Assembly: GCF_023023025.1 (NCBI RefSeq)
Contig: NZ_CP095481.1
Coordinates: 8,817,001-8,881,000, forward strand
Reading direction: 5' to 3'
DNA: 64,000 nucleotides
Source of the DNA: Amycolatopsis sp. WQ 127309
Lineage (GTDB): Bacteria; Actinomycetota; Actinomycetes; Mycobacteriales; Pseudonocardiaceae
Positions 19,635 to 31,255 of this stretch are shown here, one piece after another. The notes under the pieces were generated by a model. That model was not told where the DNA came from and did no database searches. It saw only the letters and a list, made by a program, of their open reading frames with translations. A program made the position numbers and the translations under genes. Every line of letters begins with the position of its first letter. Position 1 is the stretch's first letter.

Positions 19635-19660
19635 GCTTGGAAGCAGCGTCGCGGGGGTAC
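19635..19660 (+). promoter_or_regulatory. Candidate SigB/SigF-type promoter of the DUF3040 gene
   Basis: GCTT (19635-19638), a 16-bp spacer and GGGTAC (19655-19660) fit the actinobacterial stress-sigma consensus GNNT-N14-16-GGGTAY. The -35 is weaker than at Ku. Confidence 0.5.
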
Positions 19661-19694
19661 CTGTGGGATAAGCCGAGGCCGAGGAGGACCCCCG

Positions 19695-19997
19695 ATGCTG
19701 CCGGACCGTGAACGCCATGCCCTTCGCGAGATCGAGGCGGAACTGCTGGCGAGCGACCCCACGCTCGCCGACGTGTTCAGCGGTCGCGACATGCGGCAAG
19801 CCCGGCGCTGGAGCCTCCTGCTCATCCTGTGCGACATCACGGCGGTGGTGATGCTCGTCGTCGGCCTGTTCGCCCGGGACGCCTCGCTGGTGCTCTGGGG
19901 CACGGTCAGCGCGGGCGCGCTGGTGGCGTGGCACATCGCCCGCTCGGAGACGACCCGCAAGGCCACCACCGGCGACGCCGAGCCCGCCGCCCACTGA
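19695..19997 (+). CDS. Small DUF3040 membrane protein (100 aa)
   Basis: An N-terminal charged helix (LPDRERHALREIEAELLASD) typical of DUF3040 is followed by two membrane helices (about residues 38-57 and 62-80) and a short polar tail. ATG 19695 is preceded by GAGGAGG at ideal spacing. The function of the family is unknown; many actinomycetes carry several copies. The promoter-like sequence upstream suggests stress-sigma control. It converges on ku across a strong terminator hairpin. Confidence 0.8.
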   Translation: MLPDRERHALREIEAELLASDPTLADVFSGRDMRQARRWSLLLILCDITAVVMLVVGLFARDASLVLWGTVSAGALVAWHIARSETTRKATTGDAEPAAH

Positions 19998-20008
19998 GCG
20001 CGTTTCCC

Positions 20009-20039
20009 CCGCCTCGGTGGTCCCGGACCACCGAGGCGG
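20009..20039. terminator. Bidirectional terminator hairpin between DUF3040 and ku
   Basis: Two perfect 15-bp arms (20009-20023, 20025-20039) with a 1-nt centre lie between convergent genes. Short T runs flank both sides. Confidence 0.75.
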
Positions 20040-20045
20040 TTCTCG

Positions 20046-20990
20046 TCAGGACGCCTTGAGCGCCTTCTCCAGCTGGGTCCGCGACATCTTCGACCGGCCC
20101 TTGACGTTCTTCTCCCGCGCCAGCTTGTCCAGCTCGGTCTTGGACAGCTCCCCCAGATCGGCCTGCTTCTTCGCGGCCTTCTTCTTGCCCTTCGCCGCCG
20201 GCTTGCCGCCACCCTTGCGGCTCTTCACGCTGCGCGAAAGGGCCTCGAACAGGTCGACGACGTCGGCCGACTGCGCCGGCTCCTCCTCGTGGGCGATCTC
20301 CTTGCCGGACTCCTTGGCCTTGATCAGCTCCTCGACGCGCTCGGAGTACTCGTCGCGGAAGTCCTCCGGGCGCCACGGCGCGGTCATCTCGTCGACCAGC
20401 GACAGGGCCATGTCGAGCTCCTTCGGCCGGGCCTTGGGCACCTTGGGCAGCCCGCCCATGACGTCCTTCGGCTTCCGGAGGTCCGCGACGAAGTGCAGCG
20501 TGTTGAGGACCATCACGTCCTCGCCCGCGCGGATCGCGCAGAGGTACTCCTTGCCGCGCAGCACGAACTTCGCCACGCCGGCCTTCTCGCTGCGGTCCAT
20601 CGCCTGCAGCAGCAGCCCGTACGCCTTGGCGAAGTCCTCCTTCGCCGGCTTCAGCCAGTACGTCCGGTCGTAGAACCACGGGTCGATCTCGTCGAGCTCG
20701 ACGAACTGCTCGATGTCGATCCGCCGCGACCGCTCGGGCGCGATCTCGTCCAGCTCGTCCGGCTCGACGAGCACGTGGTCGCCGCCGCCGACGTCGTAGC
20801 CCTTGACGATCTCGTCCTGGGTGACCTCGTCGCCGGTCCGCTCGTTGACCTTGCGGTTGCGGATCCGGTCGGACGTCTCGCGTTCGAACTGGTGGAAGTG
20901 GATCGTGTGGTCCGCCACCGCGGGGTACAGCTCCACCGGAACGGTGACCAGCCCCAGGCTCAGCGCACCACTCCATACCGGTCTGGCCAT
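20046..20990 (-). CDS. ku: Ku protein, non-homologous end joining
   Basis: The 314-residue bacterial Ku starts MARPVWSGALSLGLVTVPVELY. Its bridge/core domain (about residues 10-255) matches the family. Ku homodimers thread onto DNA ends and recruit ligase D; no ligD is in the window. The C-terminal extension is basic (about 258-283, GKKKAAKK) and ends in a SAP/Rho_N-like helix pair with the signature GRSKM (about 285-314). The same terminal motif is in the small protein at 23918. A near-perfect SigF-type promoter precedes it. Confidence 0.95.
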   Translation of the reverse strand: MARPVWSGALSLGLVTVPVELYPAVADHTIHFHQFERETSDRIRNRKVNERTGDEVTQDEIVKGYDVGGGDHVLVEPDELDEIAPERSRRIDIEQFVELDEIDPWFYDRTYWLKPAKEDFAKAYGLLLQAMDRSEKAGVAKFVLRGKEYLCAIRAGEDVMVLNTLHFVADLRKPKDVMGGLPKVPKARPKELDMALSLVDEMTAPWRPEDFRDEYSERVEELIKAKESGKEIAHEEEPAQSADVVDLFEALSRSVKSRKGGGKPAAKGKKKAAKKQADLGELSKTELDKLAREKNVKGRSKMSRTQLEKALKAS

Positions 20991-21012
20991 GACGACCTCC
21001 TCAGCGCCTCCG

Positions 21013-21038
21013 ATACCCGCGCACGGTCGTCCCGAAAC
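21013..21038 (-). promoter_or_regulatory. Candidate SigB/SigF-type promoter of ku
   Basis: On the minus strand GTTT (21035-21038), a 16-bp spacer and GGGTAT (21013-21018) match the SigF/SigB consensus exactly. The leader to the ATG is about 15-20 nt and contains GAGGAGG. Confidence 0.75.
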
Positions 21039-21041
21039 CGC

Positions 21042-21239
21042 TCAGGCCACTTCGGTGCTCTTGCTGTCGCCGCGGTGCAGGCCCAGCATCTCGAGCAGCA
21101 ACGCGCAGTCGTCGGCGTCCTTGGCCCCCGCCGCGACGGCCAGTGCCGCCTTCCGGCGCAGCCGCTGCCGCTCCGGCGTGTCCTCGCCGTCGACCAGCAG
21201 GTCGACGACCGGTCGCAGATCATTCCGCTTGTCCCTCAT
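21042..21239 (-). CDS. Small hypothetical protein (65 aa)
   Basis: A short soluble protein rich in Arg, Asp and Leu (start MRDKRNDLRPVVDLLVDGED), predicted helical, with no membrane segment or known motif. GGGGAG precedes the ATG. It is 51 bp upstream of the ku start on the same strand and has its own GTGT-N16-GGGTAG promoter. It may be co-expressed with ku under stress. No function can be assigned. Confidence 0.6.
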   Translation of the reverse strand: MRDKRNDLRPVVDLLVDGEDTPERQRLRRKAALAVAAGAKDADDCALLLEMLGLHRGDSKSTEVA

Positions 21240-21277
21240 CCCGTGCTCCCCTTTTCCCGGTTCCTTCCCCAGCCCGG

Positions 21278-21303
21278 CTACCCCGCATCACCGGACGGAA
21301 CAC
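21278..21303 (-). promoter_or_regulatory. Candidate SigB/SigF-type promoter of the 65-aa gene
   Basis: GTGT (21300-21303), a 16-bp spacer and GGGTAG (21278-21283) on the minus strand, about 40 bp before the start codon. Confidence 0.55.
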
Positions 21304-21421
21304 AGGAGTCACCGGACCGGACGCCGGAGACACCGATCATTGGGCCGAACGAGTGAAATCGCCCGGTTCCGGCGCCGGACCCGGCAAGGTAGGTGAGACC
21401 CACGTCACACCAGGAGGCCGC

Positions 21422-21628
21422 ATGGGCACACAGATCCGCATCAGCCGCGAGGACGGCTCGCTGCCCTGCGAGGTCTGCGGCTTCCCCACGATGCACGTCG
21501 CGCAGGTCGTCGCCGACGACGGCCGGGTGCTCGGCCGCACCCTGGTCTGCACGACGTGCACGCGCAGCCGGCAGCCGGACCCGGTGCCCCAGGCCGACGC
21601 GCCCCCGGACGAGGTCCCCGCGAACTAA
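21422..21628 (+). CDS. Small two-CxxC protein, putative zinc ribbon (68 aa)
   Basis: ATG 21422 follows AGGAGG by 6 nt. The protein has CEVC near residue 16 and CTTC near residue 42, about 26 residues apart, a layout suited to a small zinc ribbon. The tail is acidic and proline-rich. Candidate roles are nucleic-acid or protein binding. The upstream region lacks a clear GGGTA box; the closest is AAGGTAGG. A strong stem-loop follows 2 bp after the stop. Confidence 0.7.
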   Translation: MGTQIRISREDGSLPCEVCGFPTMHVAQVVADDGRVLGRTLVCTTCTRSRQPDPVPQADAPPDEVPAN

Positions 21629-21630
21629 CT

Positions 21631-21685
21631 GTCCGTGAAGGCCTCCTTACCGGCCTTAAGAGCCGGTAAGGAGGCCTTCACGGAC
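21631..21685. terminator. 24-bp perfect stem-loop between convergent genes (hairpin family member 3)
   Basis: Arms 21631-21654 and 21662-21685 pair perfectly around the loop CTTAAGA. The outer GTCCGTGAA resembles other family members, but the interior is a different paired sequence. It separates the zinc-ribbon gene from the convergent GAF-ANTAR gene. Confidence 0.8.
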
Positions 21686-21695
21686 GTTCGAAGCC

Positions 21696-22427
21696 TCAGT
21701 TGCTCGTCGTCGCCACCGCCGCGACGAACTCGGCGGCCACCTCGTGGAGCTTGCGGTTGCCGTCCTGGGAGCGCTTGACCAGGCGCTGGAACGCGTCCTC
21801 CGCCGTGATCCGGTGTGCCGCCATCAGGATCCCCTTGGCCTGCTCGATCACCGCGCGCGTCTCCAGCGCGCGGTTGAGCTGTTCGATCAGCTCCTGCGCC
21901 GCGAAGTAGCGGCGCGCGCTGCGCAGCCCCAGCACCACCGTCGCGGTGTACAGCTCGAGGATCTTCGTGCCCAGCTCGCTGAACCCGTGCTCGCCGAACC
22001 CGAACAGGTTGACCGCGCCGGACATGTCGTCGTCCACCGTCAGCGGCGCGGCGAGGAAACTCGCGACGCCCAGCTGCTCGGCCTTCGTCACGAACTGCGG
22101 CCACAGGTCCCCGACCGCGCCGACGCCGACCCGCACCGGCTGCCCGGTTTCGGCGGCGCGCAGGCACGGTCCGTCCCCGATGCGATACTGCTCGCGGTCG
22201 AAGTTGACCGCCCGCTGGTCGGTGCTGGCGACCGTCTCCGGTTCCCCGTCCCGGACCAGGGTGATGCTCGCCATGTCGGCCCCCGGCACCACCTGCACGG
22301 CGTGGTCGCAGACGGCCTGCAACATCTGGCCGAGATCCAGCTTCGTGTCGAGCATCGCGGTCAGCGACTCCATCGCGACCGTCACATCGTCGAGCCGCGC
22401 GGTGAGCTGTTCATGCCCGCCCGTCAT
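21696..22427 (-). CDS. GAF-ANTAR sensor/antiterminator
   Basis: The 243-residue protein has an N-terminal helix, a GAF domain (about residues 30-170, with DGPCLRAAETG) and a C-terminal ANTAR domain (about 180-235, with AVIEQAKGILMAAHRITAEDAF). ANTAR domains bind paired RNA hairpins and stop termination; GAF domains sense small ligands or redox state. This fused form is common in actinomycetes. No kinase lies next to it. A second GAF-ANTAR gene is at 27879. The RNA target is unknown. Confidence 0.88.
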   Translation of the reverse strand: MTGGHEQLTARLDDVTVAMESLTAMLDTKLDLGQMLQAVCDHAVQVVPGADMASITLVRDGEPETVASTDQRAVNFDREQYRIGDGPCLRAAETGQPVRVGVGAVGDLWPQFVTKAEQLGVASFLAAPLTVDDDMSGAVNLFGFGEHGFSELGTKILELYTATVVLGLRSARRYFAAQELIEQLNRALETRAVIEQAKGILMAAHRITAEDAFQRLVKRSQDGNRKLHEVAAEFVAAVATTSN

Positions 22428-22763
22428 CCTGGTGACGCCCCTTACTTTCTTGTGCTAAGGGCGCTCTAAGACCAGGGAGGACCCGGGCGCGCGCCACAGT
22501 GGGCCGCTAGCGCTTTAACGGGTCCAGCGCGAGATTACTGCATCCCCGCGGCGGCGGGCACAAGCGGTCACCACCTCCGCGCGCCGCACGTCCGTTCGGA
22601 GCAACGGCGGTCGCGGGGCCCGCGCGGTCGTCCGGCCGCGGCCCGACGACCGGTGGCCCGTGCGGGGCGACCTCGGCGGCGCGACCGCGCCGACGTCGCT
22701 CTGTCCGAAGTGGACTGCCCGGGCGCCGGTCCACGCCGTGCTGGAAGCCGGGCAGGCCGGGTG
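22428..22763. other. Gene-free spacer
   Basis: About 340 bp with no convincing gene. Short Arg/Pro-rich readings here have no ribosome site or codon bias. Near the GAF-ANTAR start there is a GCCCCTTA/TAAGGGC-type inverted repeat (about 22436-22463). One CCACAGTGG palindrome core sits at 22494-22502. Confidence 0.6.
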
Positions 22764-22843
22764 CTAGGCGGTGTCCTGCAAGTCAAGCTCGCGGTCTTCG
22801 CGCCCAGGCGGCCCATCGAGCAGACTTACAGGACACCGCCTAG
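22764..22843. repeat. 80-bp element with IS-like inverted ends, MITE-like
   Basis: The ends 22764-22784 and 22823-22843 are inverted repeats of 21 bp with one mismatch. Each end starts with CTAG, which could be a 4-bp target duplication of the YTAR type made by IS5-family transposons. The 38-bp centre has no coding capacity. The right end contains the TAG stop codon of the LLM oxidoreductase gene. It may be a short non-autonomous element or an IS remnant; it may also act as a terminator. Confidence 0.6.
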
Positions 22844-23811
22844 TCCAGTTCGGCGGCCAGGGCCGGCAGCAGCTCCTTCTCGGCGAAGTCGAGGAAGCCG
22901 TCCTGCTGGTCGCCGCCGATCTGGATCAGCGCGACGTCGGTGAAGCCCGCCTTCGCGAACTCGCGCACGCCCTCGACGATCGGCTCGACGTCCGGGCCGC
23001 ACGGGATCGACCCGGCGACGTCGTCCTCGCGGACGAACCGGGTGGCGCCGGCGAACCCGGCCGGGCCCGGCAGCTCGGCGTTGACCTTCCAGCCGCCGGC
23101 GAACCAGCGGAACTGCTCGTGGGCGCGCTTCACCGCGGCGTCGCGGTCGGTGCCCCACGACACCGGCAGCTGGGCGATCTTGCGGGACGCCGGACCGGGC
23201 CGGGCGGCGTCCCACTCCCGCGCCAGGTCCGCCTTCGGCTCGACGGCGATCATCGCGTCGGCGACCGGGGCGAACCGGCGCACCGACTGCGCGCCGGACA
23301 CCGCGACGCCGATCGGCGTGCGCGTCTCCGGCAGGTCCCACAGCTTCGCGGAGTCGACGCGGAAGTGCTTGCCCTCGTAGCTGAAGTAGCCGCCGTCGAA
23401 GAGGCCGCCGATGATCTGGACGGCCTCGGCGAGCATGTCGTGGCGGACGTTCGCCCCCGGCCAGCCGCGCCCGACGACGTGCTCGTTGAGGTTCTCGCCC
23501 GCGCCGAGCCCGAGGGTGAACCGCCCGCCGGACAGCGCCTGGATCGTCGCCGCCTTCTGCGCCACCACCGCGGGGTGGTAGCGCATGGTCGGGCAGGTCA
23601 CGAACGTCATCAGCTCGGCGCGTTCGGTGACCTGCGTGACCGCGCCCAGCACGCTCCAGGCGTACGGCGAGTGGCCCTGTTCGGCCAGCCACGGCGAGTA
23701 GTGGTCGCTCATGACCTCGAACGCGAAACCCGCTCGTTCCGCGCCGGCGGCGTAGCGCACCAGGTCGTTCGGACCCGTCTGCTCGGTCATCAGGGTGTAG
23801 CCGATCCGCAT
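22840..23811 (-). CDS. F420-dependent LLM-class oxidoreductase
   Basis: A 323-residue luciferase-like (LLM) barrel. Features are the N-terminal MRIGYTLMTEQ, MSDHYSPWL and the cofactor-region segment GRFTLGLGAGENLNEHV. These fit the F420-dependent glucose-6-phosphate dehydrogenase-related subgroup (TIGR03557 type). It should use F420 for a hydride transfer; the substrate is unknown. Its promoter is back-to-back with that of the gene at 23918, and both have GGGTA -10 boxes. The stop codon lies inside the IS-like inverted repeat. Confidence 0.88.
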   Translation of the reverse strand: MRIGYTLMTEQTGPNDLVRYAAGAERAGFAFEVMSDHYSPWLAEQGHSPYAWSVLGAVTQVTERAELMTFVTCPTMRYHPAVVAQKAATIQALSGGRFTLGLGAGENLNEHVVGRGWPGANVRHDMLAEAVQIIGGLFDGGYFSYEGKHFRVDSAKLWDLPETRTPIGVAVSGAQSVRRFAPVADAMIAVEPKADLAREWDAARPGPASRKIAQLPVSWGTDRDAAVKRAHEQFRWFAGGWKVNAELPGPAGFAGATRFVREDDVAGSIPCGPDVEPIVEGVREFAKAGFTDVALIQIGGDQQDGFLDFAEKELLPALAAELD

Positions 23812-23836
23812 CGGAACTCCTTTCGTCCCGCGCCGC

Positions 23837-23861
23837 TTACCCGGCCCCGATAATGATCAAC
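23837..23861 (-). promoter_or_regulatory. Candidate SigB/SigF-type promoter of the LLM gene
   Basis: GTTG (23858-23861), a 15-bp spacer and GGGTAA (23837-23842) on the minus strand. Confidence 0.55.
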
Positions 23862-23867
23862 CGCGAC

Positions 23868-23892
23868 GTTTGCCCGGTCGCGGACCGGGTAT
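23868..23892 (+). promoter_or_regulatory. Candidate SigB/SigF-type promoter of the Ku-tail-like gene
   Basis: GTTT (23868-23871), a 15-bp spacer and GGGTAT (23887-23892), a full match to the consensus. It is 6 bp from the divergent LLM promoter. Confidence 0.75.
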
Positions 23893-23917
23893 CCGTCGAT
23901 CATCGAAGGGAGCGGTC

Positions 23918-24247
23918 ATGCCTCAGGCCTGGAGCGGCAAGCGCGAACGTCAGTACGAGCACATCAAGGACGCGCAGGAAGACCGCGGCGCGAGCACCAA
24001 GCGGGCCAAGGAGATCGCGGCCCGCACGGTGAACAAGAACCGGGCCCAGTCGGGTGAATCGCGTGAGGCGAGCCCGTCCTCTCTCAACGACAAGTCCCCG
24101 CAGGAGCGCGGCGGTGAGCGCTCCGGGAACGGCAAGGGCCCGGGCGGCCCGACCAGGGACCAGCTCTACAACGAAGCCAAGAAGCGGAACATCGACGGTC
24201 GCTCCAAGATGACCAAGAAAGAGCTCGAACGGGCCCTCGGCCGGTGA
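23918..24247 (+). CDS. Small basic protein with a Ku-type C-terminal SAP/Rho_N-like motif (109 aa)
   Basis: A lysine/arginine-rich soluble protein. The N-terminal half (MPQAWSGKRERQYEHIKD, then ARTVNKNRAQ) is conserved in actinobacterial proteins often labelled plasmid stabilisation protein. A disordered Ser/Gly middle follows. The C-terminus (about residues 80-109) carries DGRSKM and KKELERAL, matching the end of Ku here (KGRSKM, RTQLEKAL). The shared helix pair suggests DNA-end or nucleic-acid binding. ATG 23918 follows AAGGGA. A perfect SigF-type promoter supports stress expression. The database label is not evidence of a plasmid role. Confidence 0.8.
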   Translation: MPQAWSGKRERQYEHIKDAQEDRGASTKRAKEIAARTVNKNRAQSGESREASPSSLNDKSPQERGGERSGNGKGPGGPTRDQLYNEAKKRNIDGRSKMTKKELERALGR

Positions 24248-24273
24248 CGGCGTCCTCGAGTCCGGATCGCGAA

Positions 24274-24299
24274 GTGTCAGGGTTCCCCCAGATGGGTAG
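24274..24299 (+). promoter_or_regulatory. Candidate SigB/SigF-type promoter of the anti-sigma/sigma operon
   Basis: GTGT (24274-24277), a 16-bp spacer and GGGTAG (24294-24299). The expected start site is only a few bases before ATG 24310, so the message would be leaderless or nearly so. It implies positive autoregulation of the sigma factor. Confidence 0.65.
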
Positions 24300-24309: not shown

Positions 24310-24756
24310 ATGGAAGAAACACGAAGTGGCCCGTCCGGCGGGCAGCCGTCGGCCGACGGCCTGCTCGACGAGGTGGTGGAGCTGCGGTTGCCCGCCATGG
24401 CCGAGCAGATCCCCCTGGTCCGGATGCTCACCCACGGCATGGTGTCCCGCGCGGACTTCGGCCTGGACGCCATCGCCGACGCCAAGATGGCGGTCGACGA
24501 GGCCTGCGCGCAGCTGGTCCAGCTCGCGGAGCTCGGCACCCAGCTGCACTGCCGCTTCCGGCAGACGCCCGACGCGCTGCACGTCGTGGTCTCGGCCCGG
24601 TCGACCGACCCCCGGCCGCCCAGCGACCGGACGTTCGGCTGGCACGTGCTGACCACCCTGAGCCGGTCGGTGACCGCGCACTGCGACGTCCTGCCGGGCG
24701 GGGGCGCGGGCATCATCACGATCGAGCTGGTGCTCAACCCGGGAACGAGCGCGTGA
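24310..24756 (+). CDS. RsbW-like anti-sigma factor (serine kinase, HATPase fold)
   Basis: The 148-residue protein has the compact ATP-binding fold of anti-sigma kinases. The N-box region reads AKMAVDEACAQLVQLA (about residues 56-71). The usual Asn of that motif is replaced by Gln, and the later glycine-rich lid is weak, with a GGGAGI segment near the end. It should bind the sigma factor encoded next; the genes overlap by GTGA. A STAS-domain protein at 31298 could be the matching antagonist. ATG 24310 is chosen for its position after the promoter; no Shine-Dalgarno is visible. ATG 24292 overlaps the -10 box. Confidence 0.82.
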   Translation: MEETRSGPSGGQPSADGLLDEVVELRLPAMAEQIPLVRMLTHGMVSRADFGLDAIADAKMAVDEACAQLVQLAELGTQLHCRFRQTPDALHVVVSARSTDPRPPSDRTFGWHVLTTLSRSVTAHCDVLPGGGAGIITIELVLNPGTSA

Positions 24757-25544
24757 GCGCCGAGCGCAAAACCCTCCTCCACCGCCCCGACGAATACGCC
24801 CACTGCGAGCCGCTGTTCGAGGAGCTGGGCGAGCTCGCGGCGGACGACCTGCGGCGTGACGTGGTCCGGGGCCGGCTCGTGACCGAGCTGCTGCCGCTGG
24901 CCGAGCACATCGCGACCCGGTTCTCCGGGCGCGGGGAACCGCGGGAAGACCTGGTCCAGGTGGCCCGGATCGGGCTGATCAACGCCGTCGACCGCTTCGA
25001 CCCGGCGCGCGGGCACGACTTCCTGTCCTTCGCGGTGCCGACGATCATGGGTGAGGTCCGGCGCCACTTCCGCGACACCGGCTGGTCCGTCCGCGTGCCG
25101 CGCCGGCTCAAGGAACTGCACCTCTCGCTCAGCCAGGGGTCCGCCACGCTGTCGCAGCGCCTCGGCCGCGCGCCGACGCCGTCGGAGCTGGCCGAGCACC
25201 TGAGCCTGGACGTCGACGAGGTCCGCGAGGGCCTGCTCGCCGGGAACGCCTACCAGGCGCTGTCGGTGGACAAGCCGGTGCACGACGACGCCGAGGCGCT
25301 CTCACTGGCCGACACCATGGGCGAGCCGGACCACGAGATGGCCATGGTGGAGAACCACGAAGCCCTCCAGCCGCTGCTGCAGGAGCTGCCGCCCCGCGAG
25401 CGCGCGATCCTCGTGATGCGCTTCTTCGGCGGCCTGACGCAGACCCAGATCGCCGACCGCGTCGGCATCTCCCAGATGCACGTCTCCCGCCTGCTGTCGC
25501 AGACGCTGGAGCAGCTGCGCGGCAAGCTCACCGGCGACGCCTGA
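24753..25544 (+). CDS. RNA polymerase sigma factor, SigB/SigF/SigG stress family
   Basis: 263 residues with sigma region 2 (about 45-115: EDLVQVARIGLINAVDRFDP), region 3 (about 120-190) and region 4 (about 200-260: LTQTQIADRVGISQMHVSRL). It lacks region 1.1, as expected for group 3 sigma factors of the SigB/SigF type. This class recognises GTTT-N15-17-GGGTA promoters. Many genes within 6 kb on either side have such promoters, including its own operon, which suggests a local regulon. It starts with GTG inside the anti-sigma gene end. Confidence 0.92.
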   Translation: MSAERKTLLHRPDEYAHCEPLFEELGELAADDLRRDVVRGRLVTELLPLAEHIATRFSGRGEPREDLVQVARIGLINAVDRFDPARGHDFLSFAVPTIMGEVRRHFRDTGWSVRVPRRLKELHLSLSQGSATLSQRLGRAPTPSELAEHLSLDVDEVREGLLAGNAYQALSVDKPVHDDAEALSLADTMGEPDHEMAMVENHEALQPLLQELPPRERAILVMRFFGGLTQTQIADRVGISQMHVSRLLSQTLEQLRGKLTGDA

Positions 25545-25597: not shown

Positions 25598-27115
25598 CTA
25601 GCCGAGCCAGCCGGGGCGGTCGCCCTTCCGGAGCCGCCGCCACTGTCCCGCGAACTCCTCCCGCAGCCGCGCCGCCTTCGCGGCGTCCTGGCCGTGCAGG
25701 ATCCCGAACGTGAACGTGTTCTGGCCCTCGCCGTGCCCGTCGACGGCGAGGTGGTGCAGCACCTCCCGGCCGACCACGGTGTCCTGGTGCGCGCCCAGCG
25801 TCTGCTGCACGGCCTTGACGTTCTTGCGCCACGCGCGCAGCTTCTTCCCGTACACCGGCTTCACGGTGTCGGCGGCGTAGCGGGCCCGCTTGGCCTTCTT
25901 GCGGACGTCGTGCAGGGCCGTCTCGAGGTCTGCGCCCTTCAGCCCGCGGGTCGCGGCCTGGGCGCGGCGCAGCTTCTTCGCGGCCTTGCGGACGGACTTG
26001 CGCAGCGCGGACTTCGCGGGCTTGCGCCCGCCGTCGGTCAGCGCCGGCTCCGCCAGCACGGCGTCGAGCGCCCGCAGCAGGTTCCGGTACCGCTTGCCGG
26101 TCAGCGCCTCCAGCGCCCGGGTCCGGCCCTGCTCCTCCTCGCGCGCGAAGTAGCGCGTCAGGTACTGGCGCAGCGGTCCGAGCACCAGCTCCGGCGGCAA
26201 GCCGTCCAGCTGCTCGCCCAGCCGGTCCTGCGTGACCTCGGTGTCGCGGGCCGGCGCCAGCTCGTGGCCGAGCCACTTCAGCTCGGCGGCGACCGGCGCC
26301 GTCGCCTCTTCGTCCACAATGGACCCGAAGGTGCGCAGGGCGCTGCGGAGCTTCCGGCTCGCCACGCGCATCTGGTGCACCGAGTCCGCGACGTCCAGCC
26401 GGACGCCGACGTCGGCGCGGCGCAGGTCGTCGAAGTGCGCGCGCAGGGACGCCAGCACGACGTCCGCGGCGGCGGGCTTCTTGCGGGCGCGGCGCGGTGC
26501 GGGCACGCGGTCGCCGATCAGGCGCCGCAGCTTCGACGGCCACGGCGACGCGGTCGCGCCGGCCCCGGCCAGCGCCCGGTCGAACTCGGCCAGCAGGCCC
26601 GGCTCCGTGCCGGGGTCGAGCTCCAGTTCCAGCTCCCGCCACTCGTCGAGCCGCGCGGACTCGCCGCCGGCCTCGCCGGTCACGTGGTCGTCGGTCAGGA
26701 CGGCGACGGTCCGGCCCTCGGCGTCGGCGAGGCGGTGGGCGAAGCGGTCGGTGCGCAGGTGCGCGATCGGCACCAGCTTCTCCCCCAGCGTGTAGGCCCG
26801 GACCAGGCGCTTGAGCCGGCCGGGCACCTGGTGGGCGTCCCCGCCGAGCGGCAGCTGGATCTCCCGGCGCTCGTCGGCCGAGACGGGCAGCTTGACGTGC
26901 CAGCCCGCGTCGTGTCCGCCGACCCGGCGGCGCAGGGTGATACCGGCCTGGGCCAGCCGGAAGGTCCGGGTGTCGTAGTACGACGCGTCGAGGACCTGCT
27001 CCACGGGATCGTCCTGCGTCGCGACGCCGGCGACACCGAGCAGCCGCGGCACCCCGCTGCCCGGGACGATCTCGTACTTGCGTTCGCGCTCGATCACCAT
27101 CGACGGCGCAGCCAT
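25598..27115 (-). CDS. CYTH-CHAD domain protein
   Basis: The 505-residue protein has an N-terminal CYTH domain (about residues 7-200) with the metal/triphosphate motif ERERKYE. The C-terminal CHAD domain (about 220-500) contains conserved histidine helices such as VHQMRVASRKLRSALRTF and LHDVRKKAKRARYA. CYTH domains hydrolyse or bind triphosphates, and CHAD domains bind polyphosphate. A polyphosphate-related role is therefore likely, perhaps granule binding or turnover. It is divergent from the hemerythrin gene, and both promoters are GGGTA-type. The DAHQDT segment near residue 445 is typical of CHAD in spirit, here GAHQDT. Confidence 0.9.
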   Translation of the reverse strand: MAAPSMVIERERKYEIVPGSGVPRLLGVAGVATQDDPVEQVLDASYYDTRTFRLAQAGITLRRRVGGHDAGWHVKLPVSADERREIQLPLGGDAHQVPGRLKRLVRAYTLGEKLVPIAHLRTDRFAHRLADAEGRTVAVLTDDHVTGEAGGESARLDEWRELELELDPGTEPGLLAEFDRALAGAGATASPWPSKLRRLIGDRVPAPRRARKKPAAADVVLASLRAHFDDLRRADVGVRLDVADSVHQMRVASRKLRSALRTFGSIVDEEATAPVAAELKWLGHELAPARDTEVTQDRLGEQLDGLPPELVLGPLRQYLTRYFAREEEQGRTRALEALTGKRYRNLLRALDAVLAEPALTDGGRKPAKSALRKSVRKAAKKLRRAQAATRGLKGADLETALHDVRKKAKRARYAADTVKPVYGKKLRAWRKNVKAVQQTLGAHQDTVVGREVLHHLAVDGHGEGQNTFTFGILHGQDAAKAARLREEFAGQWRRLRKGDRPGWLG

Positions 27116-27152
27116 GGACGTCCTTCCTGGTGGCGGTGGGTTTCCTCACCGG

Positions 27153-27178
27153 CTACCCGGTGGGCCCGGTGCCGACAC
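27153..27178 (-). promoter_or_regulatory. Candidate SigB/SigF-type promoter of the CYTH-CHAD gene
   Basis: GTGT (27175-27178), a 16-bp spacer and GGGTAG (27153-27158) on the minus strand. Confidence 0.6.
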
Positions 27179-27180
27179 GG

Positions 27181-27205
27181 GATTCGGCGCACGGGCAGCG
27201 GGTAA
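27181..27205 (+). promoter_or_regulatory. Candidate SigB/SigF-type promoter of the hemerythrin gene
   Basis: GATT (27181-27184), a 15-bp spacer and GGGTAA (27200-27205). It lies 2 bp from the divergent CHAD promoter. Confidence 0.5.
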
Positions 27206-27239
27206 CCCGGAAGAAATCGAATCCGGAACAGGAGCGTGC

Positions 27240-27776
27240 ATGAACCACCGCCGGCCCGCAACCGACCTCACCACCGTCCTCGACGGCGACCACCGGGAGC
27301 TCGAGCGGCTGTGTACCGAGCTGGAGCTCGGCCAAGGCAGCCCGGAGAACCGCAAGGACCTCGCCGATCACCTCATCGGGGCGCTGGTCCGCCACACCGT
27401 CGCCGAGGAGCCCTACCTCGACGGCGCCTGGGACCTCGCCGAGGCGGACGGGCTGATGCGGCAGCTGGAGGGGGCCGGGCCGCAGGAGACGCGCTTCGAG
27501 CGGCTGCTGGGCGGGCTGATCCGCACCGTCCGGCGGCACGTGCGTGACGAAGGCGCCGAAGCGGTGGCGCGGATCCGGCGGGACTGGTCCCCGGACCGCC
27601 GCGGCGAGCTCGGCCGGGAGCTGGTCGAGGCCCGCGATGCCGCGGCGACCCTGCCGCACCCCGGCCTGTCCGACCGGATGCCCCAGGCCGACCAGCTCCG
27701 GCCGGGCCCCGGGTTCGTCGACCGGGTCCGCGGCGCGCTCGACCCGGCGTCCGGGGGAACCACCACCGCCGGTTGA
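27240..27776 (+). CDS. Hemerythrin HHE-domain protein (178 aa)
   Basis: Helical protein with metal-ligand candidates in the hemerythrin order: GDHREL near residue 17, LVRHTVAEEPYL near 50 and RRHVRDEG near 97. Hemerythrin-like proteins bind a di-iron centre and sense or handle oxygen, iron or reactive species. ATG 27240 follows CAGGAG. The C-terminal 60 residues are proline- and glycine-rich and probably disordered. The stress-type promoter fits a redox role. Metal occupancy is inferred. Confidence 0.82.
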   Translation: MNHRRPATDLTTVLDGDHRELERLCTELELGQGSPENRKDLADHLIGALVRHTVAEEPYLDGAWDLAEADGLMRQLEGAGPQETRFERLLGGLIRTVRRHVRDEGAEAVARIRRDWSPDRRGELGRELVEARDAAATLPHPGLSDRMPQADQLRPGPGFVDRVRGALDPASGGTTTAG

Positions 27777-27878
27777 CGCCACCCGCGACGGGGATCACGC
27801 CCGGCCCGGCCGGGGTGCACACTGGGATCGGGTTGAATGGGAAGGACCGCATCACGAGGGACGAAGGCAGCGAGGGAA

Positions 27879-28682
27879 ATGAGCGTCGGCGAAGACGAAC
27901 GGGCCGGAGAGCGCACCTGGACCGGTCTGGACGACCCGCGCCCGGAGGCCGGTCCGCTGGCGCGGCAGTTCGCCGACCTGACGCGCACGCTGCTCGACGC
28001 GACCCCGACGGTCGGTGGCGTGCTCAAGCTGGTCGTCGGCGCGGCCGTCGAGATCATCCCGGACGCCGACCTGGTGAGCATCACCCTGCGCGACCCGGAC
28101 GGCCGGTTCCACACCCCGGTCGAGACCGACCCGATCGCCCTGACGCTCGACGAGCTGCAGTACCAGCACGGTGAGGGCCCCTGCGTCGAGTCCGCCTGCC
28201 CGGACGGGCCGGCGATCGGCTGGTCGCAGGACGTCGGCCGGGACCCGCGGTGGCCGTCGTTCGGCCCCGGCACCGCGGCGCACGGCTTCCACTCGGTGCT
28301 GGCGACCACGCTGATCCCCGACGCCCGGCCGCCCCGGCTGTCCGGCGCGCTGAACATCTACTCGCGCAAGCCCGGCGCGTTCGACGCCGCCGCCATCGAC
28401 GCCGCGCTGCTGCTCGCGACGCACGCGTCCCTGGCCCTGGCCCACACCGAGTCCGTCGTGTCCGCCGAGCTCGAGGCGACCCACCTGCGCACGGCGGTCG
28501 ACAGCCGCGACGTGATCGGGCAGGCGAAGGGCATCCTGATGCAGCGCCGCGGCATCACGGCCGACGAGGCCTTCGACGTCCTACGCAAGGCCTCGCAGGA
28601 CCTGAACGTCAAGCTGGCCGACCTGGCCAGAACCCTGGCGACTCGCCACACCGAGGTGGACCTGCCGGTCCCCGGGCCCTGA
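27879..28682 (+). CDS. GAF-ANTAR sensor/antiterminator
   Basis: The 267-residue protein has a GAF domain (about residues 35-195, including HGEGPCVESACPDGPAIG) and an ANTAR domain (about 205-262: DSRDVIGQAKGILMQRRGIT, then ADEAFDVLRKASQ). It is the second such regulator in 6 kb, and the two share the domain order but differ widely. CGAGGGA precedes ATG 27879. No GGGTA promoter is visible. A perfect hairpin immediately downstream separates it from the convergent membrane protein gene. Confidence 0.88.
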   Translation: MSVGEDERAGERTWTGLDDPRPEAGPLARQFADLTRTLLDATPTVGGVLKLVVGAAVEIIPDADLVSITLRDPDGRFHTPVETDPIALTLDELQYQHGEGPCVESACPDGPAIGWSQDVGRDPRWPSFGPGTAAHGFHSVLATTLIPDARPPRLSGALNIYSRKPGAFDAAAIDAALLLATHASLALAHTESVVSAELEATHLRTAVDSRDVIGQAKGILMQRRGITADEAFDVLRKASQDLNVKLADLARTLATRHTEVDLPVPGP

Positions 28683-28686
28683 CACG

Positions 28687-28724
28687 CCGAAAGCGTCACT
28701 TCCACGTGGAAGTGACGCTTTCGG
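28687..28724. terminator. Perfect 38-bp palindrome between convergent genes
   Basis: Two 19-bp arms (28687-28705 and 28706-28724) pair perfectly with no spacer bases. It is just after the GAF-ANTAR stop and before the end of the convergent gene at 28738. Confidence 0.8.
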
Positions 28725-28737
28725 TGCGGGCGTGAGC

Positions 28738-29202
28738 TTACGGCGCCGTGTAAGGCGGCCGCTGGTCCAGCGACGGGCTGACGTCCGGGTACCGGCCGTC
28801 CTGGCCCGTCACCGGCGTGACCGTGGGGCCCTGCTGCTCCGGTTCGATCCGCTGCCGACCGCCCCGCTGGACGACGGCTTCGACCTCCTGCTCGCCGCGG
28901 ATGCGGGCCAGCGCGCCGAGCGTGATCGCGTGGGCCAGCGCCAGGATCAGCAGCAGCACGCCGATCCGGGCGATGATGCTGGGCAGGTCACCGCCGATGT
29001 TGATGGTCGAGACGAGCGCCAGCACACCCAGCGTCGCCAGGTGGAACAGCACCGTGACCAGCCGGGCCATCGACGCCCCGGCCGCCGGGTCGCCGTAGGA
29101 GTTTTCGAGGTAACGGCGGCCGCTGCGGTAGATGATCTGGCCGTCCGCGACGACCAGCAGCGCGCCGATCAAGAGAAACGCGAGGTATGCGTTCGTGCTC
29201 AT
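28738..29202 (-). CDS. Small integral membrane protein, function unknown (154 aa)
   Basis: Three hydrophobic helices are visible (about residues 5-22, 45-65 and 72-95). A basic stretch and a proline/glutamine-rich cytoplasmic-type tail ending PPYTAP follow. No family is recognised. The GTTT-N16-GGGTAC promoter upstream is one of the best in the region, so stress control is likely. GAAGGAG precedes the ATG. Confidence 0.78.
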   Translation of the reverse strand: MSTNAYLAFLLIGALLVVADGQIIYRSGRRYLENSYGDPAAGASMARLVTVLFHLATLGVLALVSTINIGGDLPSIIARIGVLLLILALAHAITLGALARIRGEQEVEAVVQRGGRQRIEPEQQGPTVTPVTGQDGRYPDVSPSLDQRPPYTAP

Positions 29203-29239
29203 GCCGGACGCTCCTTCCTGGGGGACCTCTCCGGAAGAG

Positions 29240-29265
29240 GTACCCGGCGGGTAGCGCAGGGAAAC
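29240..29265 (-). promoter_or_regulatory. Candidate SigB/SigF-type promoter of the 154-aa membrane protein
   Basis: GTTT (29262-29265), a 16-bp spacer and GGGTAC (29240-29245) on the minus strand, a full consensus match. Confidence 0.75.
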
Positions 29266-29272
29266 GCGTCCG

Positions 29273-30112
29273 TCACCCGGTGAAGGTGTCGGGGTCGGGC
29301 CCCGTGCGGTGGCCGTCGTCGAGCCCGCCGATCGCCGCCATGTCCTCTTCGCCGAGTTCGAAGCCGAAGACGTCGATGTTCTGCCGGATCCGCTCCGGCG
29401 TCGACGACTTGGGGAACACGATGTTCCCGAGCTGGATGTGCCAGCGGAGGACGACCTGCGCGGCGGTGCGGTCGTACTTCTCGGCGAGCCCGGTCAGCAC
29501 CGGGTCCTCGAGCACCTCGGCCCGGGCCAGCGGGCTCCACGCCTCGGTCGCGATGCCGTGGGCGCGGTGGTATTCGCGCAGTTCCGCCTGCTGCAGCGCC
29601 GGGTGCAGCTCGATCTGGTTGACTGCGGGCACCGTGCCGGTCTCCTCGGCGAGCCGGTCGAGGTGCTCGGGCTGGAAGTTCGAGACGCCGATCGCGCGGG
29701 CCTTCCCGGCCCGCAGGATGTCCTCGAAGCCCTGCCACGTCTTGACGTACTTGCCGGTCTTCGGCAGCGGCCAGTGGATCAGGTACAGGTCGACGTGGTC
29801 GAGCCCGAGCCGCCGCAGGCTGCCCTCCAGCGCGGTGATCGCGTTGTCGTAACCCTGGGCGTCGTTGGCGAGCTTCGTGGTGACGAAGACGTCCTCGCGC
29901 GCCAGGCCGGACTCCGCGATGGCCGCGCCGACCCCCGCCTCGTTCCGGTACATCTGCGCGGTGTCGATGTGCCGGTAGCCCGCGTCCAGCGCCGTCCGCA
30001 CGGCGTTCGCCGTGGCGTCGGCCGGGATCTGGAACACCCCGAACCCGAACTGCGGGATCCGGACGCCGTTGTTCAGTTCCACAGAGGGGACATTGGCTGT
30101 CGTGGTGGTCAT
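29273..30112 (-). CDS. Aldo/keto reductase
   Basis: The 279-residue AKR barrel belongs to the 2,5-diketo-gluconate reductase-like branch. The catalytic tetrad is visible: Asp and Tyr in DAGYRHIDTAQMY, Lys in VTTKLAND and His in LYLIHWPLP. The NADPH site near the end includes FPKSSTPERIRQN. It should reduce aldehydes or ketones, useful against stress-derived carbonyls. A full-consensus SigF-type promoter precedes it. The end of the gene abuts the promoter of the membrane protein at 29202. Confidence 0.92.
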   Translation of the reverse strand: MTTTTANVPSVELNNGVRIPQFGFGVFQIPADATANAVRTALDAGYRHIDTAQMYRNEAGVGAAIAESGLAREDVFVTTKLANDAQGYDNAITALEGSLRRLGLDHVDLYLIHWPLPKTGKYVKTWQGFEDILRAGKARAIGVSNFQPEHLDRLAEETGTVPAVNQIELHPALQQAELREYHRAHGIATEAWSPLARAEVLEDPVLTGLAEKYDRTAAQVVLRWHIQLGNIVFPKSSTPERIRQNIDVFGFELGEEDMAAIGGLDDGHRTGPDPDTFTG

Positions 30113-30121
30113 GCGTCCGGC

Positions 30122-30147
30122 CTACCCGAGGCGTCCGGACGCGAAAC
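30122..30147 (-). promoter_or_regulatory. Candidate SigB/SigF-type promoter of the aldo/keto reductase
   Basis: GTTT (30144-30147), a 16-bp spacer and GGGTAG (30122-30127) on the minus strand. The -10 box ends about 10 bp before the ATG, so the leader would be very short. Confidence 0.7.
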
Positions 30148-30233
30148 GCCACGGGCCGGTACCCACCCCACGGTTTCACTCTTCCGAGTGACCTTCCGCA
30201 GGACAGCGCGGTTACCCGGGCAAATCCGGCGTG

Positions 30234-30258
30234 GTTATCCACGCCGGAACGCGGGTAG
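30234..30258 (+). promoter_or_regulatory. Candidate SigB/SigF-type promoter of the holin-DUF3618-DUF4235 operon
   Basis: GTTA (30234-30237), a 15-bp spacer and GGGTAG (30253-30258), followed by AGGAGGT and a GTG start at 30280. Confidence 0.6.
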
Positions 30259-30279
30259 CCCGGCCCCAGGAGGTATTCC

Positions 30280-30693
30280 GTGATCGAAGAAGTGAACAAG
30301 AAGCCCGCGGCCGAACGCTCGGTCGGCGAGCTGGTGTCGGACCTGTCCGACGAGGTCAAGCGCCTCGTCCGGGACGAGATCCGGCTCGGGGTCATCGAGC
30401 TGCAGCACAAGGGCAAGAAAATGGGCTTCGGCGCCGGGTTGTTCGGCGCCGCCGGGCTGTTCGCGCTGTTCGGCGTCGGGGCGCTGGTCGCCACCGCGAT
30501 CCTCGCACTGGCGCTCGTGGTCCCCGCCTGGCTGGCGGCGCTGATCGTCGCCGTGGCACTGTTCCTGATCGCCGGGGTCGCCGCCCTGGTCGGCAAGAAG
30601 GAAGTCACGCAGGCGGTGCCGCCGGTGCCGGAGGAAGCCATCGCCGGTGTCCGCGAAGACGTGGACACCGTGAAACAGGGAGTGCACTCATGA
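30280..30693 (+). CDS. Phage holin-superfamily III / DUF1469 membrane protein
   Basis: 137 residues: an amphipathic N-terminal helix (SVGELVSDLSDEVKRLVRDE), then two strongly hydrophobic helices (about residues 50-75 and 80-105) and a charged C-terminus. This is the actinobacterial putative phage holin family, which is chromosomal and usually sits with DUF3618 and DUF4235, as here. The role is probably envelope stress or membrane organisation rather than lysis. It starts with GTG after AGGAGG and overlaps the next gene by ATGA. Confidence 0.87.
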   Translation: MIEEVNKKPAAERSVGELVSDLSDEVKRLVRDEIRLGVIELQHKGKKMGFGAGLFGAAGLFALFGVGALVATAILALALVVPAWLAALIVAVALFLIAGVAALVGKKEVTQAVPPVPEEAIAGVREDVDTVKQGVHS

Positions 30694-30995
30694 GCGGGGA
30701 CTTCCCGAAGAACGCGGAAGAGGCGCGGCTCGACCGCGACGCCACCCGTGAAGAGCTGACCGAGACCCTGGACGCGCTCGGGCAGAAGCTCGACGTGAAG
30801 ACCCGGGTCACCGAGAACATCGACGGCAAGCTCGACCAGGCCACGCTGAAGGTCGCCGACGTCACGAACGAGCCGACCGCGGTGAAGTTCCGCCAAGGCG
30901 CCGACGCCGTGCGCAGCAACCCGCTGCCGGTCTTCGCGGGCGTGCTGGGCCTGGTGATCGTGATCCGGCTGATCGCGCGACGGAGGAACTCGTGA
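30690..30995 (+). CDS. DUF3618 single-span membrane protein (101 aa)
   Basis: A charged coiled N-terminal segment (EARLDRDATREELTETLDAL, the DUF3618 hallmark) is followed by one C-terminal membrane helix (about residues 78-95) and a basic RRR end. It is translationally coupled to both neighbours (ATGA before, GTGA after). The function is unknown; the conserved operon suggests an envelope complex. Confidence 0.87.
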   Translation: MSGDFPKNAEEARLDRDATREELTETLDALGQKLDVKTRVTENIDGKLDQATLKVADVTNEPTAVKFRQGADAVRSNPLPVFAGVLGLVIVIRLIARRRNS

Positions 30996-31255
30996 ACAAG
31001 GTCGTCTACAAACCGCTCAGCTGGGGTGTCGGTGCCCTCGGCGGGCTCCTCGCGGGCCAGGTCTTCAAGCAGGTCTGGAAGCGCGCGGCCGGCGAAGAAG
31101 ACGCCCCGGACGCGATCGACCGCGACTACACCTGGACCCAGGTGATCATCGCGGCCGCCGTCCAGGGCGCGATCTTCGGTGCCGTCAAGGCCGCTACCGA
31201 ACGAGCCGGCGCGGTCGGTTACCGCAAGGCGACCGGCGACTGGCCGGACGACTGA
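30992..31255 (+). CDS. DUF4235 membrane protein (87 aa)
   Basis: The N-terminal helix contains VYKPLSWGVGALGGLLAGQV, the DUF4235 signature. A second hydrophobic helix lies near residues 48-68, and the tail is charged. It is the last gene of the stress-type envelope operon and starts with GTG overlapping the DUF3618 stop. Confidence 0.87.
   Translation: MNKVVYKPLSWGVGALGGLLAGQVFKQVWKRAAGEEDAPDAIDRDYTWTQVIIAAAVQGAIFGAVKAATERAGAVGYRKATGDWPDD

What the first reader, a model, noticed from the sequence alone, without database searches (positions are those of the whole stretch)
19635..31255. A stress-sigma island: eleven GGGTA-type promoters around a SigB/SigF operon
Reading upstream of each gene, I find GNNT-N15/16-GGGTA(C/T/A/G) at 19635, 21013, 21278, 23837, 23868, 24274, 27153, 27181, 29240, 30122 and 30234. 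Four have a full GTTT -35 (21013, 23868, 29240, 30122). They are oriented towards their genes, and two pairs are back-to-back (23837/23868 and 27153/27181). The centre of the set is the anti-sigma/sigma pair itself (24274). The controlled set would join DNA end repair (Ku), a Ku-tail-like protein, polyphosphate binding (CYTH-CHAD), hemerythrin, F420 and aldo/keto reductases and an envelope operon. The family consensus is established knowledge; the idea of a physically clustered regulon is inference.
Basis: partly seen in the sequence, partly recalled or inferred. Interest (0 to 1): 0.8.

Follow-up and report, generated by a model that had tools for sequence, protein, structure and literature searches.

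The report
Stress-sigma regulon gathered around its gene
In this soil actinomycete (an Amycolatopsis or close kin) the gene for a stress-response sigma factor sits among genes, including a DNA-break-repair gene, most of which carry the start signal predicted for that kind of sigma factor, and related species mostly keep those signals even where the genes lie elsewhere.

Summary
In detail: all eleven GNNT-N15/16-GGGTA sites exist, outside genes, 15-44 bp before a start codon in the correct orientation. It is far beyond chance: 10 of 13 island genes with at least 60 bp of upstream space carry one, against 0 of 22 in the rest of the window and 5 of 387 in control stretches of the same genome. In five upstream regions compared across 16-17 loci, the boxes are more conserved than the other columns. 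Ku, CYTH-CHAD and hemerythrin homologues elsewhere mostly have a GGGTA box (28 loci of 33 less one: 27). Where ku lacks its own box it lies only 15-27 bp behind a small gene that has one (11 of 11). Best reading: a SigB/SigF-type regulon physically gathered around its sigma operon, as M. smegmatis expression data also suggest for SigF. What looks new is ku in such a regulon in Pseudonocardiales and Actinoplanes kin, and repeated assembly of the same families beside SigB/F genes. Not shown: that transcription starts at these boxes, or that this sigma rather than one of three paralogues reads them.

The parts
19635..19660 (+). GGGTA-type promoter, GCTT-N16-GGGTAC, 40 bp before DUF3040 gene
   Evidence: GCTT-16-GGGTA in 3 of 4 loci holding the gene, a poorer -35 in the fourth
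19695..19997 (+). DUF3040 membrane protein
   Evidence: Pfam PF11239 60.3 bits
20046..20990 (-). Ku, DNA end-binding protein of NHEJ
   Evidence: TIGR02772 304.9 bits (cut-off 150)
21013..21038 (-). GGGTA-type promoter of ku, GTTT-N16-GGGTAT, 28 bp before start
   Evidence: own box in 8 of 19 ku loci of this clade (own included), the other 11 have ku 15-27 bp behind the 65-aa gene
21042..21239 (-). 65-aa protein, no family; probable operon partner of ku in relatives
   Evidence: no hit; adjacency
21278..21303 (-). GGGTA-type promoter of the 65-aa gene, GTGT-N16-GGGTAG
   Evidence: GGGTA box in 17 of 17 loci; 19 of 19
21422..21628 (+). 68-aa protein, no GGGTA site found
   Evidence: no Pfam hit above cut-off
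21696..22427 (-). GAF-ANTAR protein, no GGGTA site found
   Evidence: PF03861 77.1 bits
22840..23811 (-). F420-dependent LLM-class oxidoreductase
   Evidence: TIGR03557 477.4 bits (cut-off 210.4)
23837..23861 (-). GGGTA-type promoter of the F420 oxidoreductase, GTTG-N15-GGGTAA
   Evidence: a GGGTA site in 16 of 16 loci of window + L057-L072 holding the gene (at 97 bp in L057); boxes 95-96% vs 75% other columns
23868..23892 (+). GGGTA-type promoter of the 109-aa gene, GTTT-N15-GGGTAT, divergent from the previous site
   Evidence: 17 of 17 loci of window + L057-L072 (spacer 17 in L060-L072) and L073; none before the homologues in L084-L086; 100% box conservation
23918..24247 (+). 109-aa protein with Ku-tail-like C-terminus, in the position of chaB in the mycobacterial sigF operon
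   Evidence: no family; 32-residue match to Ku tail
24274..24299 (+). GGGTA-type promoter of the anti-sigma/sigma operon, GTGT-N16-GGGTAG, 16 bp before start (near-leaderless if used)
   Evidence: GTGT-N16-GGGTA also in L057-L059 and L073-L081, not in L060-L072
24310..24756 (+). RsbW-like anti-sigma factor (HATPase_c_2)
   Evidence: PF13581 29.6 bits (cut-off 27.4); RsbW equivalog models below cut-off
24753..25544 (+). SigB/SigF/SigG-family sigma factor, start overlaps anti-sigma gene by 4 bp
   Evidence: TIGR02980 296.3 bits (cut-off 234.35), NF005514 SigF 377.5 (cut-off 372)
25598..27115 (-). CYTH-CHAD protein
   Evidence: PF05235 201.1 bits, PF01928 31.9 bits
27153..27178 (-). GGGTA-type promoter of CYTH-CHAD gene, GTGT-N16-GGGTAG
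   Evidence: GGGTA box in 18 of 19 loci of this clade (own included)
27181..27205 (+). GGGTA-type promoter of hemerythrin gene, GATT-N15-GGGTAA, divergent from the previous site
   Evidence: 19 of 19 loci of this clade (own included)
27240..27776 (+). hemerythrin-domain protein
   Evidence: PF01814 32.8 bits (cut-off 25.3)
27837..28682 (+). GAF-ANTAR protein (start 27837 or 27879), no site of its own; may be read from the hemerythrin promoter (inference)
   Evidence: PF03861 79.5 bits
28738..29202 (-). 154-aa membrane protein, no family
   Evidence: present in L057-L068 and L070-L072
29240..29265 (-). GGGTA-type promoter of the 154-aa membrane gene, GTTT-N16-GGGTAC
   Evidence: 15 of 16 loci of window + L057-L072 holding the gene
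29273..30112 (-). aldo/keto reductase
   Evidence: PF00248 180.2 bits
30122..30147 (-). GGGTA-type promoter of the aldo/keto reductase, GTTT-N16-GGGTAG, 15 bp before start
   Evidence: 5 of 5 loci holding the gene
30234..30258 (+). GGGTA-type promoter of the three-gene envelope operon, GTTA-N15-GGGTAG
   Evidence: 17 of 17 loci of window + L057-L072; -10 box 100% conserved
30280..31255 (+). operon Holin-X family (30280-30693), DUF3618 (30690-30995), DUF4235 (30992-31255)
   Evidence: PF07332, PF12277, PF14019

Best explanation
The region is a stress regulon gathered around the operon of the sigma factor that most likely reads it. An RsbW-like anti-sigma factor holds a SigB/SigF-family sigma; stress releases the sigma, and RNA polymerase carrying it starts at eleven GNN(T)-N15/16-GGGTA promoters, including its own. 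The products would be Ku (break repair), hemerythrin, CYTH-CHAD, F420 and aldo/keto reductases, and small and envelope proteins. The same promoter class serves further genes around the chromosome (superoxide dismutase, OsmC, a second hemerythrin, a LigD phosphoesterase-domain protein, STAS and anti-sigma-like proteins). Shown here: the boxes, their placement, local excess, conservation, and presence before homologues found elsewhere. Inferred: that the boxes are used, that this sigma rather than a paralogue uses them, that release is by partner switching, and what the genes do in stress.
For: Local excess: 10 of 13 island genes with >=60 bp upstream, 0 of 22 in the rest of the window, 5 of 387 in controls, Fisher P 3e-14. 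Genus: 52 strong sites within 6 kb of the best sigma match in 30 relatives against 2.0 expected; 8 of the 30 have none and the species are related. Conservation: -10 and -35 columns 95-100%, other upstream columns (last 18 bp left out) 68-76%, five regions, 16-17 loci. Beyond the window's clade: box before Ku in 10 of 11, CYTH-CHAD 7 of 11, hemerythrin 10 of 11 loci. In 19 of 19 clade loci ku has its own box or lies 15-27 bp behind the 65-aa gene, which has one. GTGT-N16-GGGTA before the anti-sigma gene persists in L073-L081, where most island genes are gone. Strong sites elsewhere precede STAS, anti-sigma-like, kinase, SOD, OsmC and hemerythrin genes. Mycobacterial SigF consensus GTTT-N14-19-GGGTA and a SigF-dependent promoter before chaB-rsbW-sigF are published (PMC4694148; PMC7693655; passages and one section part).
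Against: No transcript data. Four SigB/F/G genes exceed the family cut-off in this genome, and the sites cannot be assigned to one of them by sequence. In L060-L072 the anti-sigma gene lacks the GTGT-N16-GGGTA box, and in L084-L086 the 109-aa homologue lacks one. CYTH-CHAD has no box in 4 of the 11 loci L226-L236, one of them (L229) beside sigF. The other two ku genes of this genome have none, and 0 of 15 Streptomycetaceae ku loci have one. Of 49 strong sites examined outside the window, 16 have no gene start within 250 bp by my gene caller.
Confidence: 0.8

Rival explanations
1. The promoters are real SigB/F-class promoters, but are read mainly by one or more of the three other SigB/F/G paralogues, or shared among all of them; nearness to this sigma gene is partly incidental.
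For: Paralogues at 3.01, 6.24 and 6.90 Mb exceed the family cut-off. Strong sites also lie by two of them: 8 of 54 within 5 kb of any of the four, 0.19 expected. In several relatives CYTH-CHAD, hemerythrin or ku lie beside a SigB/F gene that is not the best match to this one. Nine Streptomyces SigB homologues share promoters (PMC8346170, passages).
Against: The largest set is here, four strong sites and eleven in all, and the box before this operon is kept in L073-L081 where most other genes are gone. The 3.01 Mb paralogue locus has GGGCA boxes near its operon, hinting at different preferences.
Confidence: 0.35
2. The clustering comes from shared ancestry of a gene block; the GGGTA boxes travelled with it and there is no selection for nearness.
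For: L057-L059 keep all the genes and L060-L072 a subset in order. Hemerythrin, CYTH-CHAD and the 109-aa gene also occur together without SigF in the flanks read (all three at L227; two of them at L226, L258 and L259).
Against: The same families sit beside different SigB/F genes in other clades: Ku 5 of 26, CYTH-CHAD 5 of 22, hemerythrin 7 of 28 rows against 0.13-0.17 expected each; six of the seven hemerythrin and four of the five CYTH-CHAD cases look like one event each. Relatives carry other GGGTA-led genes there (SRPBCC-like, P450, LigD-like ligase).
Confidence: 0.4
3. The boxes are chance GGGTA matches in GC-rich intergenic DNA.
For: GGGTA with a loose -35 is short; the controls hold 47 promoter-positioned GGGTA for 664 genes when no -35 is required.
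Against: Anagram, same-genome and conservation controls.
Confidence: 0.02

Closest known systems
SigF regulon of Mycobacterium smegmatis (chaB-rsbW-sigF, MSMEG_1802-1804)
   Same: SigB/F-type sigma behind an RsbW gene, a small gene in front (chaB there, the 109-aa gene here), GTTT-N-GGGTA promoters, hemerythrin members, and a dense run of dependent genes near sigF: 28 entries from MSMEG_1758 to MSMEG_1804 in part 1 of section 9, Table 1, plus MSMEG_1803 and 1807 in passages. A P450 is among them, as in 8 relatives here (P450 named by reading).
   Different: Most of the neighbours are not the same genes by name. Part 1 of the table names no Ku, and the tag I recall for its ku (MSMEG_5580) has 0 occurrences in the main text; part 2 was seen only in passages. 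The terms adjacent, vicinity, neighbo-, in close proximity and same locus have 0 occurrences, so I cannot say the authors noted the cluster.
SigB and its homologues (nine in all) of Streptomyces coelicolor
   Same: Same promoter class, including a less conserved GNNT -35, and several paralogues in one genome (PMC8346170, passages).
   Different: 0 of 15 Streptomycetaceae ku loci tested have the box. Whether the rest of the gene set agrees was not tested.
Stress- or development-sigma control of NHEJ elsewhere: B. subtilis sigma-G (PMC5124664, section 30 read) and alphaproteobacterial EcfG (PMC7083833 passages; PMC6599016 passages)
   Same: ku placed under an alternative sigma factor.
   Different: Other sigma families and promoter sequences; here it is predicted for a SigB/F-type sigma in Actinomycetota.

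Membership tests
SigB/SigF/SigG-family sigma factor | Match above the curated cut-off of the family model | tested here: met
   TIGR02980 296.3 bits, cut-off 234.35; NF005514 SigF 377.5, cut-off 372
RsbW-type anti-sigma factor | HATPase domain and gene next to its sigma gene | tested here: met
   PF13581 29.6 bits, cut-off 27.4; 4-bp overlap with sigma gene
RsbW-type anti-sigma factor | Match above cut-off to an RsbW equivalog model | tested here: not met
   NF003144 46.8 bits, cut-off 145; TIGR01924 42.6, cut-off 155.05. Called RsbW-like only
RsbW-type anti-sigma factor | Binds and inhibits the neighbouring sigma; kinase on an antagonist | not testable with these tools
   needs protein work
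SigB/SigF regulon | Promoters of the class GTTT/GNNT-N14-17-GGGTA | tested here: met
SigB/SigF regulon | Transcripts lost without the sigma factor | not testable with these tools
   needs a mutant and RNA
Autoregulated anti-sigma/sigma operon | Own-class promoter before the operon | tested here: met
   GTGT-N16-GGGTA at 24274-24299, also in L057-L059 and L073-L081; not before this gene in L060-L072
Bacterial Ku (NHEJ) | Match above the Ku_bact cut-off | tested here: met
   TIGR02772 304.9 bits, cut-off 150
ChaB (for the 109-aa gene) | ChaB domain | tested here: not met
   no Pfam hit and no NCBIfam hit at E 0.01; same place in the operon only

The most novel reading that the evidence does not exclude
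SigB/F-type sigma loci of Pseudonocardiales act as assembly points: genes of the stress regulon, among them non-homologous end joining, repeatedly come to lie beside one or other SigB/F gene while keeping or sharing a GGGTA promoter, so the regulon is held together in space as well as by sequence, perhaps because a sigma made beside its promoters reaches them first.
Probability: 0.3. Interest if true: 0.75.

Novelty: new variant of a known kind. Interest (0 to 1): 0.55.

Why it matters
It turns a reading-level guess into a testable regulon map for an Amycolatopsis, a genus known for rifamycin and vancomycin (recalled). It offers a specific hypothesis for what switches on ku outside growth in Pseudonocardiales and Actinoplanes kin. 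The wider question is open: Streptomyces ambofaciens kuA rises about tenfold late in growth and the NHEJ-like genes are not induced by mitomycin C (PMC5124664, passages and section 30), with no regulator named in what I read; but the box is absent from the 15 Streptomycetaceae ku loci tested, so this answer does not carry over to them. It also gives a natural case for asking whether regulons are selected to sit next to their regulator.

Tried and rejected
Chance match: rejected by same-genome, anagram and conservation controls. 'Each SigB/F paralogue of this genome has an equally dense island': not supported; the paralogue loci L094 and L095 have 3 and 1 strong sites but only 1-2 promoter-positioned sites each by my gene caller, and L349 has one GGGTA and two GGGCA sites. 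L096, with 3 strong sites, has no SigB/F/G gene over the cut-off. 'ku escaped regulation in 11 of 19 clade loci': rejected after finding the 65-aa gene 15-27 bp upstream with its own box. Generality for ku: 41 of 80 named ku loci have a GGGTA box before ku or a gene of its apparent operon, against 60 of 478 other genes in the same loci; longer operons give more chances, so this favours ku; 7 more have only GGGAA/GGGCA boxes. The 109-aa gene as ChaB: no family support. Structure prediction and the billion-protein search were not used. Literature: ten searches; in the rows listed I saw no paper on this locus or on a SigB/F-type sigma controlling ku, and (Amycolatopsis, GGGTA, sigma factor, promoter together) found 0. 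Several searches listed only part of their hits (for example 10 of 417), and only open-licence papers are held.

Selection in counts: of 35 genus relatives, I fetched the locus of 30; G017, G023, G024, G027 and G035 were left out. One search used the Ku rows at >=49% and CYTH-CHAD rows at >=50% identity in G001-G035 outside the window's clade. Its first hemerythrin count (7 of 25) had left out three qualifying rows, so I recounted all rows at E<=1e-9: 7 of 28. Sigma positions came from the truncated list. Whether the loci lie away from a SigB/F gene was checked for 7 of 11 Ku, 9 of 11 CYTH-CHAD (L229 is beside sigF) and 7 of 11 hemerythrin loci; for the others only the 1.5-kb flanks were seen, without SigF.
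Full report
What is there. The window lies at 8.82-8.88 Mb of an 11.13-Mb single-contig genome; the eight best named loci in a ku search are Amycolatopsis species. A simple codon-based gene caller, written for this purpose and trained on 40 control stretches, returns 17 genes in 19400-31299; starts were chosen by score and are predictions. Families: DUF3040, Ku, two small proteins, two GAF-ANTAR proteins, an F420-dependent oxidoreductase, a 109-aa protein, an RsbW-like anti-sigma factor, a SigB/F/G sigma factor, CYTH-CHAD, hemerythrin, a 154-aa membrane protein, aldo/keto reductase and a Holin-X/DUF3618/DUF4235 operon.

Is it more than chance? I compared the same motif at the same placement (GGGTA 8-100 bp before a same-strand start, not inside a gene). 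In the island there are 11 sites for 17 genes; in 40 evenly spaced 20-kb stretches of the same genome there are 7 for 664 genes. Restricting to genes with at least 60 bp of upstream space, to remove the effect of intergenic room, gives 10 of 13 in the island, 0 of 22 in the rest of the window and 5 of 387 in controls. Scrambling the box letters gives 0-2 sites for the 19 other anagrams against 11 for GGGTA. Genome-wide, GTTTN15/16GGGTA occurs 57 times against 3 for the reversed pattern; in 60 genomes of the genus, this one included, the sums are 3,234 against 605, with an excess in 60 of 60. So the motif is over-represented genome-wide and locally concentrated: four strong sites in 10 kb, P = 0.0007 for any such cluster; a 5-kb scan shows no excess.

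Conservation. I fetched 20-kb stretches (two shorter) around the best sigma match in 30 of 35 genus relatives and at 7 loci of other families. Three relatives (L057-L059) have matches to all 18 genes searched; thirteen (L060-L072) keep the 65-aa gene, F420 oxidoreductase, 109-aa gene, anti-sigma, sigma, 154-aa gene and envelope operon, with absences in L067 and L069, but lack ku, DUF3040, CYTH-CHAD, hemerythrin and aldo/keto reductase there; the other fourteen keep fewer, some only the anti-sigma and sigma genes. At 64-75% sigma identity some of these may not be orthologues. Sites recur before orthologues at similar distance: 65-aa gene 17 of 17, F420 oxidoreductase 16 of 16, 109-aa gene 17 of 17 (but 0 of 3 in L084-L086), 154-aa gene 15 of 16, envelope operon 17 of 17, aldo/keto reductase 5 of 5. 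In five aligned upstream regions the -10 and -35 columns are 95-100% conserved, the other columns 68-76%, the last 18 bp left out.

Homologues beyond the window's clade. In 60 genus genomes I searched Ku, CYTH-CHAD and hemerythrin and read 30 loci of each. For each, 19 loci belong to the window's clade (own included). In the other 11, a GGGTA box with at least 3 of 4 -35 letters precedes Ku in 10, CYTH-CHAD in 7 (one of the four without is beside sigF) and hemerythrin in 10 (one at 3 bp, where the start is probably misplaced). None of these 33 has SigF in the 1.5-kb flanks read except that one CYTH-CHAD; one search confirms a distance above 10 kb, or a different contig, for those it covered. 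Many of these species are closely related, so the counts are not independent. Membership of the promoter class therefore appears not to depend on the present location.

The ku case. Of 19 ku loci of the window's clade, 8 have their own GTTT-N16-GGGTA box and lie 51-348 bp behind the 65-aa gene; 11 lack it and lie 15-27 bp behind that gene. The 65-aa gene has a GGGTA box in all 19. Either way ku is predicted to be under the same promoter class. The other two ku genes of this genome have no such box. In 80 named ku loci, 41 have a GGGTA box before ku or its apparent operon against 60 of 478 other genes in the same loci; examples outside Amycolatopsis include Prauserella, Lentzea, Paractinoplanes and Tamaricihabitans, while 0 of 15 Streptomycetaceae do. 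A LigD phosphoesterase-domain protein at 7.83 Mb also has a GTTT-GGGTA site, as do LigD-like ligases near the sigma matches of L083 and L085 (that name is from reading the sequence, not a family search).

Gathering at sigma genes. In 30 relatives there are 52 strong sites within 6 kb of the sigma match against 2.0 expected from each genome's total; 8 of 30 have none. Outside the window's clade, Ku lies within 10 kb of a SigB/F/G gene in 5 of 26 genomes, CYTH-CHAD in 5 of 22, hemerythrin in 7 of 28 rows, against 0.13-0.17 expected each. Allowing for clades this is perhaps eight separate cases, an estimate by eye; no tree was built. Relatives add other GGGTA-led genes at the locus, among them a 154-aa SRPBCC-like gene (17 loci) and a P450 (8 loci); the names are by reading, and the SRPBCC one is backed by the Pfam hit of a similar protein of this genome at 7.49 Mb, which also has a GTTT-GGGTA site.

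Rest of the regulon. Strong sites elsewhere precede superoxide dismutase, OsmC, a second hemerythrin, aldehyde dehydrogenase, a Na+/H+ exchanger, two STAS proteins, a MEDS-HATPase protein, a protein kinase and the 6.24-Mb sigma paralogue. Of 49 such sites examined outside the window (of 50), 33 have a start within 250 bp and 16 do not; some of the 16 probably serve genes the caller missed.

What it works like and what is known. The layout resembles the mycobacterial SigF operon: a small gene, RsbW, sigma, with an own-class promoter, and a published list of SigF-dependent genes that runs densely from MSMEG_1758 to MSMEG_1804 (PMC4694148: section 9 part 1 of 2 read, other passages). The nearest regulation of NHEJ by an alternative sigma that I read of is in other sigma families. 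In ten searches of an open-licence library, judged by the rows listed, I saw no report of SigB/F-type control of ku in Actinomycetota.

Verdict. Which sigma reads it is open because of three paralogues. Interest comes from ku and from the repeated gathering, not from the promoter family, which is established.

Noticed in passing
30112-30280: Relatives hold an SRPBCC-like gene between the aldo/keto reductase and the envelope operon; the window lacks it, and a GGGTAA box at 30217-30212 (-) may be the remnant of its promoter.
   Followed up: partly
31851-33137: Pyridine-nucleotide oxidoreductase whose counterparts in L057-L059 have GTTT-N15-GGGTAA 44-55 bp upstream; the window copy has no such site.
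   Followed up: partly
21696-22427 and 27837-28682: Two GAF-ANTAR proteins (ANTAR as an RNA-binding antiterminator domain is recalled) sit in the island without a GGGTA site.
   Followed up: no
L349 (own genome, 3.008-3.018 Mb): The SigB/F paralogue there has divergent GTTT-N16-GGGCA boxes near its operon, a possible paralogue-specific -10.
   Followed up: partly
L226, L227, L258, L259: Hemerythrin, CYTH-CHAD and the 109-aa gene occur together in pairs or threes without SigF in the flanks read, as if a sub-cluster moves as a unit.
   Followed up: partly
L096 (own genome, 4.508-4.528 Mb): Three strong GTTT-GGGTA sites within 6.3 kb but no SigB/F/G gene over the cut-off there.
   Followed up: partly
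21630-21682 and 28690-28725: Inverted repeats between genes, terminator-like (seen by eye).
   Followed up: no
G000:C1 5140, 3940978, 10230893: Three identical GTTT-N16-GGGTA matches that I take to be 16S rRNA copies (recalled); worth removing in any genome-wide scan with this motif.
   Followed up: no
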